Shown one piece after another: positions 2,327 to 62,023 of a stretch of DNA of 64,000 nt. Where the stretch lies: assembly GCF_032854445.1 (NCBI RefSeq), contig NC_088296.1, positions 10,204,706 through 10,268,705 on the forward strand. Direction: 5' to 3'. How positions within the stretch are numbered: position 1 is the first letter of the stretch; each line of letters begins with the position of its first letter. The position numbers were made by a program, and so were the translations under genes. The notes under the pieces were generated by a model that searched no databases, had not been told where the DNA came from, and worked only from the letters and a program-made list of their open reading frames with translations. This stretch comes from Liolophura sinensis. Taxonomy: Eukaryota > Mollusca > Polyplacophora > Chitonida > Chitonidae.

Positions 2327-2801
2327 TCAATTAGGATGTTGTGTCAGATTTGTGTATAAAGTTTCGCAAACGTTGCTCGTACGTGCTTGGGTCTCCTCGC
2401 TTATGGCCTCGTACGGGTCGACACTGTCACGTGTAGAGATGTCAGAGGCAGATCGAGGTGCCTGATCAACCGCTGACATTTCAGGTTGTGTCAGAGTTGT
2501 GTATATAGTTTCAGAGATCTCTGGCGTACTGGCAGAGGTGTAGATTCCACTTGAAGGGTTGCTTGGCCGTGCCGTGGCCTCTTCACTGATGTTCTCGTAG
2601 GGAGGGACAGTACTACGGGTAGAGACGTCAGCAGCAGATCCAGGTCCCTGATTAGCCGCTGACACTCCCGGTTCTGAAACAGCTCCATAGTCTGTGCCAT
2701 AACTGCGTCTGGTCCTGTCCGGTACTGCCAAACCAATGACATTTTGATAGGAGTGGTCTGTGTTATGGCTTGTTGTGGGGTTCGTTGAGCTCATATTTCT
2801 C
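2327..2801 (-). CDS. Locus A cytoplasmic tail exon
   Basis: Terminal exon. The acceptor is TGTATTACAG|G at 2802 (phase 2, completing Arg with the TM exon's AG), and the stop is at 2327. It encodes about 158 residues beginning RRNMSSTNP. Low complexity (Ser, Thr, Pro, Ala) with tyrosine motifs YQNV, TDYGAV (matches the ITSM consensus TxYxxV), YENI, TIYTTL, YEAI and TLYTNL. YENI, YQNV and YTNL also fit the pYxN motif bound by GRB2-type SH2 domains. An internal duplication of about 50 residues repeats the order STR..xPYE.ISEE..AR.SN..ET.YT.LTQ. Function in signalling is inferred from motifs only. Confidence 0.75.
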
Positions 2802-5800
2802 CTGTAATACAACGGATTGAGCACATATTCGGCATTCATCATATTTATTGATAAATAAACAATTTCTTACGTCCAGGCGTCGTATTAGAAATCTCTATGC
2901 CAATTGCTTGAATAATGAACATCCCAGATCAGTAATTTTTTTTACAAAACTTTGCGCACATCCCTTTCCTCACCTGAAGACAACAACAGCTAGGACGACC
3001 ACAGCTAGAAGAACCACTCCGCCTATACCTACTGTCAGACCGATCGTCAACGTTGAGGAATCCCTTGCTGTTGATTCAGCTGCGGCAGTAACGACTGAAA
3101 CGTAGTAAACAAGAACAACTCAGCATACGAGCTTCTTGATGATTGTTTAGCGCAGTAGTATTTGATCCACATCCTATTATAATGTTATATATTTTATTTG
3201 GAAACTTAGCATTACTTTAATAGCCCATAGAACAGGCAATGTTTAGATTTATGGATGGGAGGAATCAGAGGCAGGACAAACAGAATTCACCGCACCTCCT
3301 CAGGTCAACCTCGACTGGTTGCCATGAGAGAAATTTATTCGAATAAGTGGATAGAGAATTCTCCGGGGAAACCAAAAGCAAAGTGAATAAAAAATCTTGA
3401 ATCGACTGTCCTACTTGATGCATGAAACATATTCAGGGAAATTAGGGCAACATGCAACTGTTCGTTTCCTTGGGGTTAAACTCCAGACTGGGGCAAAAAC
3501 TTCCTGGTGCCCTGATTTGCAGTCGAAAGCTACATTTCTTTGTTGTTCAGCATTTACTTACTTCTACCGCACAACTACCCAACTCTTCACCCTCTTTAAG
3601 CTTGAATCCCTCCTCACACACGCACGTGTAGTCGCCCTCCGTATTTACACAAACAGAATTGTTGCCGCATGTGTTTGGATTTTCGGTACACTCATCAATA
3701 TCTATGGCACGTGTAAAATATCGGAATATGTATATGTGCGTGGAGAAATGATAGAATAAAAAAACTTTCTTGAGTAAAATACAAACTGTGCAATATTTTG
3801 TTCTTCATTCCTGGTCTCTTGCAAGCATAGCCATTAAAGTATAAAATATACATGACAAGCAACAGAAGAGAGATTGTGAATTTAAATACATATAGACAAA
3901 TTTACTAATAGCATATACCGTTTTGTTCTATTGGTAAGGACGACGAACTATTTAGAGGCGGCGCTGATGGCATGTAAATTGACAAAAACCTATCATATTG
4001 CCGTTGCTGCTCTGGTTTTTCTCTCAATACTGGACGTCTAAATTACATTCCTTGTTCATGTACATGTAATCGACTCAATGTAGTCACCACAGTCAGTACT
4101 CTGTAACTGAGCTGAGATCAAGTCTTTGGCATGATGCGTTAGTGAGGCAACACCATAACCACGATGACACACTGTATGAATGAATGTCTGATTAGGGTCT
4201 ACAAATCTACGTACAGCCGCCTGAATCTGCCTATTCTTTCGCTGGTACTTTATACTTGCATACCCAGACTGAATCCCACCTCTTCATCCTCTCTTTGTCT
4301 GTACCCCAACCCACACACGCACGTGTAGTTGCCCACCGTGTTTGTACAAACAGTTGTTACCACATATGGTTTGATTTTGGGTACACTCGTCAATATCTGT
4401 ATGGCACACGTAAAACATAAGCTTACGTAACAACTACACTTTTATATGTAACCTGTGTCTTATATGGTGTTCATTTTTCGTTTGTTGCAAGCATACCTAA
4501 CAGCTATGAAATCTGCACCTCTATCTGTCAACAAAATCGGTGAACAGAAAAGAGTATGTACATTTCAAAATAATTATAATTGATTTCATCATTTGTATAT
4601 AATATTTACGAGAACTAAGGCTGCGGAACTATTCAGAGACAGTTGTGATACCGTGTGACTTCATTGCTAATGGAACCCTATCAATGGAGTCACCACAGTC
4701 ATCACTCTGTAGCTGAGTTGAGATCAAGTTTTCGGCATGATGCGTTAGTGAGGTAACACCATAACCATGATGACACACTGTATGAATGAATGGCTAATTA
4801 AGGTCCAACACCACCTTGTACTGTGGATGTGGACAAATATACGGATAACCGCCTGGATCTGCCCCCTTTCGTCCGTTGGTACCTGATACTTGCTTACCCA
4901 GATTGCATCCCACCTCTTCACTATCCCTCTGCCTGTATCCCTCCGCACACACGCACGTGTAGTTGCCCACCGTGTTTGTACAAACGCAGTTGTTACCACA
5001 TATGGTTGGATTTTCGGTACACTCGTCAATATCTGTAGAGCACACGTAAAACATAAGCTCACATAACAACTACACTTCTACATGTAACCTACGTCTTGCA
5101 TTTTGTTCATTTTTCGTTTGTTGCAGGCATACCTACCAACTATGAAATTTGCACATTTATCTCTCAACAAAATCAGTAAACAGAAAAGAATGTGGAAATT
5201 TCAAAACAATTATAAATTAATTTAAATGACCCATTAGATGATTAAGTGGATGACTGGTTAGGGACAAACGCCATCATTGTATCATGGGTGTGGACAGATC
5301 TAAGGAAAACCGCCTGTAGCTACCCTTTGTTCTTCTTATGTTTACAGTTGCTTACCCAGATTGCACCCCACCTCTTCGCCCTCTCCATGCCTGTATCCTT
5401 CCGCACACGCGCACCTGTAGTTGCCCACCGTGTTTTCACAAACAGAGTTGTTGCCACATAGGTCTGTCTTTCTTTCACATTCGTCGATGTCTGGTTAGGA
5501 CGTTTCAAGCATAAGGGATATATGATTAATTACAAGAACATGGCACATCTATGACATGCAGCCAATATACTCTTCAAATGGGGTCAACAGAGTACTGGTT
5601 TCAAAGCTACCTTTCTAATCGAAGCCAAGATGTCCTTTATAATTACAGCTTTTCTGTAACATCCCCTATTAAATGTGGTGTGTCATGGCCTTCTAGGCTT
5701 TATTCTCTTTCTACATTATATCAAAGATTTATTTGATTCATGTTTCACGCCGTTATTTCAATGTTAAAAATGTCTTCTTCTGCCCGATTGGACTTTGTAC

Positions 5801-61460: not shown

Positions 61461-61944
61461 GGAGTAACAGTTATTATATATCAAACATTTTCCTGAAGAC
61501 CAACGTCATTACTTAAAATTGCGAATGGCCCAAACTTGCTTGTATTTAGTCTTGTTTTTTAACCTTATGCATTTAGATCCCACCCGGGGATTCCATAAGG
61601 TTGCTGACACAAGTATATTCCGTTGCAACTTAATTGCCATGGAACTCCAAAAGTCTTAGCTGGAAACTTACTGACAGAAAAAATACTTTTTTTTCAATGC
61701 AAACCATTTTTTGCACACTTTAAGTGTACGGATCACAGTGATGACAAATGGGCACTTCTCAAAGACGACTTGCCCTTAATCAAAGAGGTGGCGGTAGCTT
61801 TATTCGATTCCAGCCCCCGCCTGATCGGATGGTTTGTCTGTTACCCAAGTAACTAAACAGCCAGCTGTGTGATACATTATATACAACTGACAGAATCTGT
61901 TTTCCTGTCTTAACTCTAACACGTTTACACTTCAAGCAGCTTAC

Positions 61945-62023
61945 CTGGGACACATGTCAATGTTAAAATGACCAATAGAATCAGAATCTGTCCCCAGCGT
62001 CTTGGAAGGGTCTGAACCTCCAT
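61945..62023 (-). CDS. Orphan signal-peptide exon upstream of locus D
   Basis: 79 bases, donor GTAAGC, phase 1, [20 protein letters not shown] then TLTCVPG. Intact, with the leader GAATCCTGACAGCGG. No N, M or EGF exon lies between it and the locus D first exon, so it could be an alternative first exon of locus D or a leftover of a deleted gene. Confidence 0.75.

What the first reader, a model, noticed from the sequence alone, without database searches (positions are those of the whole stretch)
2327..62023. Cluster of an apparently unnamed receptor family: signal / N / M / cbEGF / TM / tyrosine-rich tail
Seen: four loci and two extra first exons share exon sizes (79, 132, 123-144, 135, 121), phase 1 module borders and cysteine spacings. 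Established: calcium-binding EGF exons and tyrosine motif consensus. Inferred: a lineage-expanded family of recognition or engulfment receptors evolving by birth and death (one open, three damaged copies). The N and M head modules do not match a family I can name.
Basis: partly seen in the sequence, partly recalled or inferred. Interest (0 to 1): 0.9.

Follow-up and report, generated by a model that had tools for sequence, protein, structure and literature searches.

The report
Mollusc receptor family with fast-changing heads
In what looks like a mollusc genome, a large and apparently undescribed family of cell-surface receptors has fast-changing tips outside the cell and a conserved signalling tail inside, which makes it a good candidate for a recognition system; its function has not been tested.

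Summary
The window carries five loci, not four, of one receptor family: 79-nt signal exon, N exon, M exon, calcium-binding EGF exons, TM exon, tyrosine-rich tail. None is clean. The copy called open (D, 522 aa) is frameshifted at the start of its tail exon; the 522-aa model needs a poor splice acceptor. Three close copies outside the window are open throughout (540 aa), and a five-EGF member is open over about 580 residues (signal exon not found). Genome-wide there are at least 67 N-type and 49 M-type exons, mostly on C2 and C13. An eight-unit haemocyanin gene points to a mollusc. N and M are six-cysteine modules, probably divergent EGF-like domains. Between D and its two more distant copies N and M differ 2.4-4 times more than introns (nonsynonymous 23/205 against 153/5507, P=5e-8); EGF and tail exons do not. 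D-type tails carry 9 YxxPhi motifs (2.6 expected), mostly about 20 residues apart, never as a canonical ITAM. Best reading: a lineage-expanded recognition receptor with a diversifying head and a conserved phosphotyrosine tail. Two defining features of CED-1/Draper/MEGF10 are not met. Ligand, cell type and signalling are inferred.

The parts
57028..57106 (-). Locus D signal exon (79 nt)
   Evidence: identical in P1 and P4
55677..55808 (-). Locus D N exon (132 nt)
54533..54667 (-). Locus D M exon (135 nt), GC-AG donor
   Evidence: donor present in four copies
53277..53411 (-). Locus D cbEGF 1
   Evidence: EGF_CA 1.3e-9
52611..52745 (-). Locus D cbEGF 2
51822..51956 (-). Locus D cbEGF 3
50854..50974 (-). 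Locus D transmembrane exon (121 nt)
49785..50536 (-). Locus D tyrosine-rich tail exon, frameshifted near 50470 relative to three intact copies
61945..62023 (-). Upstream first exon of the D block (79 nt)
7925..8056 (-). Locus A N exon
7110..7241 (-). Locus A M exon
5356..5490 (-). Locus A cbEGF 1
4898..5032 (-). Locus A cbEGF 2
4264..4396 (-). Locus A cbEGF 3, 133 nt, frameshifted
3558..3701 (-). Locus A cbEGF 4 (144 nt, shifted donor)
2974..3094 (-). Locus A transmembrane exon
2327..2801 (-). Locus A tail exon (a different Tyr-rich tail)
23417..23495 (-). Signal exon upstream of B (79 nt)
17715..17846 (-). Locus B N exon
16536..16679 (-). Locus B M exon (144 nt); the scan found no cbEGF of its own before locus A
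43863..43941 (-). Locus C signal exon (79 nt), tentative
40532..40664 (-). Locus C N exon, 133 nt, frameshift and stops
39232..39354 (-). Locus C M exon (123 nt)
38371..38505 (-). Locus C cbEGF 1
37683..37817 (-). Locus C cbEGF 2
36104..36194 (-). Locus C transmembrane exon, short and with a stop
35175..35715 (-). Locus C tail, short of most tyrosine motifs
26708..26786 (+). Locus E (fifth, plus strand) signal exon
28132..28263 (+). Locus E N exon with in-frame TAG

Best explanation
A receptor family, most likely of a mollusc, expanded by tandem and segmental duplication. Shown: an intact D-type member is a single-pass membrane protein, signal peptide / N / M / three cbEGF / TM / tail of about 230 residues; another member has five cbEGF and in a third none was found. 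N and M are the fastest-changing exons in the D group, with all six cysteines of each kept there; the tail keeps most of its tyrosines. Inferred: N and M are divergent EGF-like modules forming a variable ligand-binding tip; the calcium-stiffened EGF rod holds it off the membrane; ligand clustering lets Src-type kinases phosphorylate the evenly spaced YxxPhi sites, which recruit SH2/PTB proteins and drive adhesion, uptake or activation of phagocytic cells. New specificities arise by duplication, head divergence and sequence exchange between copies, while a common signalling tail is kept; broken copies accumulate.
For: Four D-type copies with the same eight exons, three of them open over 540 aa. 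At least 67 N and 49 M exons in clusters. N+M nonsynonymous D-P4 23/205 and D-P3 20/205 against introns 153/5507 and 167/5509 (P=5e-8, 1e-5); cbEGF (D-P4 7/316) and tail (P1-P4 10/584) not raised. Over six paralogue groups nonsynonymous divergence exceeds the flanks in 12 of 14 N, 6 of 12 M and 2 of 11 cbEGF pairs (cbEGF from two groups only). Mosaic identity: D-P1 99.8-100% from the signal exon through the second cbEGF exon, 96.5-98.3% from intron 6 to the tail; P3-P4 tails differ at 1 of 751 sites while introns 1-6 differ by 2.5-3.9%. The 13 Tyr-consensus tail columns average 0.81 identity against 0.66 for other columns (20 tails, A left out; the 0.81 is my mean of the listed values); YxxPhi enriched in 16 of 21 tails. 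EGF_CA 3.4e-23 and only EGF-type models in the 540-aa P4 protein.
Against: No expression, ligand or cell-type data. The acceleration is strong in one paralogue group; individually significant elsewhere only in one N and one M pair; P3-P4 heads are not accelerated (8/204, P=0.23). In many head pairs synonymous divergence also exceeds the flanks, and on recount 15 of 20 D-specific head bases occur in at least one other paralogue, so exon-limited conversion or retention is not excluded. No canonical ITAM in 21 tails; NPxY in 9 of 21; 5 of 21 tails are not enriched in YxxPhi. EGF identity of N and M is weak and the folds had no significant match. Cysteine conservation across the wider family is partly built in, since candidates were required to have five or more cysteines.
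Confidence: 0.55

Rival explanations
1. Endocytic scavenger receptors: the YxxPhi motifs are AP-2 sorting signals rather than phosphotyrosine docking sites, and the head binds debris or soluble ligands for uptake.
For: Many motifs are YxxPhi (9 against 2.6 expected in D-type tails); a multi-EGF ectodomain suits scavenging.
Against: In D-type tails the motifs are many, regularly spaced and partly in YxN-, ITIM- or NPxY-like contexts; head divergence is more than simple scavenging needs (inference).
Confidence: 0.2
2. Gamete or self recognition receptors: head divergence reflects sexual conflict or allorecognition.
For: The same evolutionary signature would arise.
Against: Large families with multi-tyrosine tails are more usual among blood-cell receptors (recalled); there are no expression data either way.
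Confidence: 0.15
3. Head divergence is not selection but exon-limited gene conversion from diverged paralogues plus relaxed constraint in a decaying cluster.
For: Mosaic identity blocks show sequence exchange or repeated duplication; synonymous rates in many head exons exceed the flanks; 15 of 20 bases where D differs from both P3 and P4 occur in at least one of 10 N or 5 M paralogues compared (my count); several copies are broken. Confidence raised from 0.25 to 0.3 after this recount.
Against: 5 of those 20 bases occur in none of the paralogues compared; the flanking introns are not displaced; the D group keeps its cysteines, its EGF exons and, in P1, P3 and P4, its tail.
Confidence: 0.3
4. 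Adhesion or developmental receptors of Notch or EMR type that merely expanded in this lineage.
For: cbEGF rod; N resembles EGF1 of EMR2 (E=0.18, not significant).
Against: Only EGF-type models at E<=0.01 in the 540-aa protein, so no seven-TM, GAIN or ankyrin match; fast heads.
Confidence: 0.15

Closest known systems
MEGF10 / Draper / CED-1 engulfment receptors (PMC8092387, passages read)
   Same: Single-pass, EGF-type ectodomain, cytoplasmic YxxL-type motifs, NPxY in some members
   Different: No EMI model in the full protein scanned; calcium-binding EGFs; no canonical ITAM in 21 tails; many paralogues with fast heads
EGF-TM7 receptors EMR2/CD97 (ADGRE2/5)
   Same: A first EGF in front of calcium-binding EGFs (recalled); N shares the cysteine register of EMR2 EGF1
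   Different: One TM and a Tyr tail instead of GAIN plus seven TM; the similarity is not significant (E=0.18)
MEGF/galactose-binding receptor tyrosine phosphatases of Biomphalaria sudanica SudRes1 (PMC12297450, passages read)
   Same: Mollusc, clustered, single-pass, multi-EGF ectodomain, tyrosine signalling theme, region linked to parasite resistance
   Different: Those carry intracellular phosphatase domains and a galactose-binding domain; these carry a substrate-type Tyr tail
Biomphalaria GRC / PTC2 single-pass transmembrane clusters (PMC7494358, passages read)
   Same: Mollusc clusters of diverse single-pass proteins
   Different: PTC2 proteins have no known domain beyond the TM; these have EGF modules and a conserved tail; polymorphism was not tested here and no sequence comparison was made

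Membership tests
CED-1/Draper/MEGF10 | EMI domain at the N terminus | tested here: not met
   Only EGF-type models at E<=0.01 in the 540-aa P4 protein, the one full protein scanned
CED-1/Draper/MEGF10 | Cytoplasmic ITAM Yxx[IL]x6-12Yxx[IL] | tested here: not met
   0 of 21 tails; 1 of 21 if V is allowed
CED-1/Draper/MEGF10 | NPxY motif | tested here: inconclusive
   9 of 21 tails
EGF-TM7 (ADGRE) | EGF1 plus calcium-binding EGF array | tested here: inconclusive
   cbEGF clear; N to EMR2 EGF1 only E=0.18
EGF-TM7 (ADGRE) | GAIN domain and seven TM helices | tested here: not met
   No such model at E<=0.01; one TM exon followed by the tail exon
MEGF/GBD-RPTP of SudRes1 | Intracellular tyrosine phosphatase domains | tested here: not met
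   D and A tails reach no Pfam cut-off
GRC/PTC2 single-pass clusters | Sequence homology and extreme allelic divergence | not tested
   No GRC or PTC2 sequences and no population data were at hand
EGF-like domain (for N and M) | Six cysteines in EGF register with C-x-C and a match to an EGF model | tested here: inconclusive
   Register met in 16 of 17 N and 17 of 17 M (candidates preselected for cysteines). Best Pfam E 4e-4 (N, EGF_TEN, 2 of 17 members) and 3e-4 (M, EGF_Mua-3, 5 of 17); no cut-off reached by seven window modules. hhalign N-cbEGF 65%, M-cbEGF 5%, N-M 5%; no significant fold match
EGF_CA (stalk modules) | Match above the curated cut-off | tested here: met
   38.6 bits for D's first module (cut-off 27); 82 bits, three stretches, in P4

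The most novel reading that the evidence does not exclude
A germline-diversified recognition system of a mollusc: dozens of receptors share one conserved phosphotyrosine tail and an EGF rod, while a two-module tip is driven to change faster than neutral DNA and is spread between loci by exon-scale sequence exchange, so the clusters work as a factory of new specificities, comparable in role to snail FREPs or vertebrate paired receptors (both recalled).
Probability: 0.3. Interest if true: 0.8.

Novelty: new variant of a known kind. Interest (0 to 1): 0.58.

Why it matters
How animals without antibodies diversify recognition is an open question, and molluscs are hosts of medically important parasites. 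This family offers a concrete test: a short variable head on its own exons, a conserved tail whose phosphorylation can be read out, intact and broken copies side by side, and close duplicates that differ mainly in the head.

Tried and rejected
Rejected: membership in CED-1/Draper/MEGF10 (no EMI model, no canonical ITAM); EGF-TM7 (no 7TM); receptor phosphatases (no PTP domain). P1 as a mere assembly duplicate of D is unlikely: opposite orientation, about 250 kb away, and 96.5-98.3% rather than 99.8-100% identical from intron 6 to the tail, though copy number was not checked with reads.

Limits of counts: one search used rows typed (the rows at E<=1e-3; lower-scoring rows only in part, so its second table at 0.01 is a lower bound); one search scored 150 of 187 candidates. 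The library of exon candidates kept only stop-free exons with five or more cysteines. In one search flanks were counted outwards in 50-base blocks and stopped at the first block under 75% identity, which biases flank divergence downwards for distant pairs; P1 was left out there because its heads equal D's; pairs within a group are not independent. Fisher tests used rounded counts. Tail statistics used 21 tails (19 loci plus A and C); P4's tail L042 and the overlapping loci L052-L057 were left out, and tails are stop-to-stop frames. The cluster was read in pieces, not whole. The 14 control genomes gave no EGF_CA match either, so they say little about animals.

Full report
What is there. The window is C2:10204706-10268705 of a 609-Mb genome. 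Locus D: signal 57028-57106, N 55677-55808, M 54533-54667, cbEGF 53277-53411, 52611-52745, 51822-51956, TM 50854-50974, tail 49785-50536, all minus strand. Locus A (2327-8056), locus B (N and M only, 16536-17846, with a signal exon at 23417) and locus C (35175-43941, N frameshifted, TM broken) are listed under parts. A fifth locus lies on the plus strand: signal 26708-26786 and an N exon at 28132-28263 with an in-frame TAG; a 42-bp minisatellite of about 40 copies starts at 28424, about where an M exon would be expected from its relatives (inference).

The 'open' copy is not clean. Three close copies, P1 (in C2:10000732-10011065), P3 (in C2:10390445-10400602) and P4 (in C2:10493181-10503409), read open to the stop from the acceptor that in D lies at 50537|50536: 540 aa each. 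D has a frameshift near 50470. D may still be expressed through the weak acceptor; only cDNA can tell. The M intron has a GC-AG donor in all four copies.

Family size. Protein searches with D's head, with two other heads and with D's tail found clusters at C2 9.9-10.6 Mb (the window is inside), C2 13.0-13.8 Mb, C2 7.5-8.6 Mb and C13 11.7-12.1 Mb, plus C114, C185 and C2 17.3 Mb. Merged at E<=1e-3 there are 67 N-type and 49 M-type exons, a lower bound. A member with N, M, five cbEGF, TM and tail is open over about 580 residues; its signal exon was not found in the 1.5 kb examined. A 13-Mb member has N, M, TM and a tail short of the later motifs, with no cbEGF found between. So head, TM and tail seem to define the family, and the EGF rod varies. 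A gene with eight haemocyanin beta-sandwich units on C8 (8 matches, best 3.3e-41) points to a mollusc (that this family is molluscan is recalled).

What N and M are. N has C-x3/4-C-x5-C-x4/6-C-x-C-xn-C, M has C-x6-C-x5-C-xn-C-x-C-xn-C; all six cysteines are present in 16 of 17 N and 17 of 17 M sequences aligned, but candidates had been preselected for cysteines. Profile comparison links N to the family's own cbEGFs (65%) but M hardly (5%), nor N to M (5%). Scanned member by member, 5 of 10 Pfam families listed for N and 6 of 10 for M have EGF in their name; best E 4e-4 and 3e-4; EB has the most M members (6 of 17). No curated cut-off was reached by the seven window modules. The best solved relative of the N profile is EGF1 of EMR2 (E=0.18, not significant, same cysteine register). 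AlphaFold models reached pLDDT 76 and 78 without a significant fold match. I call both divergent EGF-like modules, N with fair and M with modest confidence.

Head evolution. D against P4: N 88.6% and M 91.1% identical, the seven introns 95.7-98.0%, cbEGF 95.6, 96.3 and 100%, signal exon 100%, tail 97.3%. Nonsynonymous differences in N+M are 23 of 205 sites against 153 of 5507 intron sites (P=5e-8); D against P3 20 of 205 against 167 of 5509 (P=1e-5). EGF exons (D-P4, 7 of 316) and tail (P1-P4, 10 of 584) are not raised, and neither are P3-P4 heads (8 of 204, P=0.23). Over six paralogue groups nonsynonymous divergence exceeds the flanks in 12 of 14 N pairs (3 significant at 0.05), 6 of 12 M pairs (3 significant) and 2 of 11 EGF pairs from two groups (0 significant). 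Pairs within a group are not independent. Synonymous rates are also high in many heads. Of 20 head positions where D differs from both P3 and P4, the D base occurs in no other compared paralogue at 5 and in at least one at 15 (my count); so point change and conversion or retention may both contribute.

Sequence exchange. D and P1 are 99.6-100% identical over 1.5 kb upstream, 99.8-100% from the signal exon through the second cbEGF exon, and 96.5-98.3% from intron 6 to the tail; P3 and P4 share a tail with 1 difference in 751 while introns 1-6 differ by 2.5-3.9%. This mosaic is what conversion or repeated duplication leaves.

Tail. Of 21 tails, A, C and two others (L064, L069) align poorly or in part; in the rest the order of motifs is the same. 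The 13 Tyr-consensus columns average 0.81 identity against 0.66 for others (20 tails, A left out). D-type tails hold 9 YxxPhi motifs (2.5-2.6 expected by shuffling); 16 of 21 tails are enriched at P<0.05; 18 of 21 have Yxx[ILV] pairs with 13-20 residues between; none has a canonical ITAM; 9 of 21 have NPxY. Motifs in the main class: YENV/I, YEEV, YSLA, YSNH or YNVL, YNVL, YNTLY, YxTTYS, YDEL.

How it most likely works. Shown: architecture, expansion, fast heads in one group, conserved tyrosines, broken and intact copies. Inferred: ligand binding by N-M, rod-like EGF spacer, phosphorylation and SH2/PTB docking, a role in blood-cell recognition or uptake.

Comparison. MEGF10 and Draper tails carry an ITAM and NPxY, CED-1 a YxxL and NPxY, and Draper and CED-1 have EMI domains (PMC8092387, passages); EMI and ITAM are not met here. 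In Biomphalaria, parasite resistance maps to a region with multi-EGF receptor phosphatases (PMC12297450, passages) and to clusters of diverse single-pass proteins, those of PTC2 without known domains (PMC7494358, passages): same theme, different proteins as far as described. Paper searches found no description of this family (listings).

Verdict. A real, large, apparently undescribed receptor family; a new variant of multi-EGF single-pass receptors. Its interest lies in the variable head on a constant signalling tail; function is untested. On the final recount one odds figure changed: the conversion rival rose from 0.25 to 0.3.

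Noticed in passing
61945-62023 and G000:C2 near 9997313, 10404957, 10506880: A second, upstream 79-nt first exon lies about 5-6 kb before the signal exon of all four D-type copies; open with a GT donor in D, P1 and P4, not recovered with an ATG in P3. Possible alternative first exon or promoter.
   Followed up: partly
G000:C2:13572934-13574211 and 13484068-13485403: Some relatives show three N-type matches in a row about 0.5 kb apart, some with stops: multi-N heads or exon arrays.
   Followed up: no
28424-30128: 42-bp minisatellite with about 40 copies, starting just after the broken N exon of locus E.
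   Followed up: no
8878-11639 (+): Open frames between loci A and B; one has a weak DUF7869 match (22.8 bits, cut-off 26), perhaps a mobile element.
   Followed up: partly
54136-54378: Perfect 121-bp tandem duplication inside intron 3 of locus D; that intron shows 124-125 gapped bases between D or P1 and P3 or P4.
   Followed up: no
G000:C8:37880506-37891931: Haemocyanin gene with eight beta-sandwich units in one array, used to point to a mollusc.
   Followed up: yes
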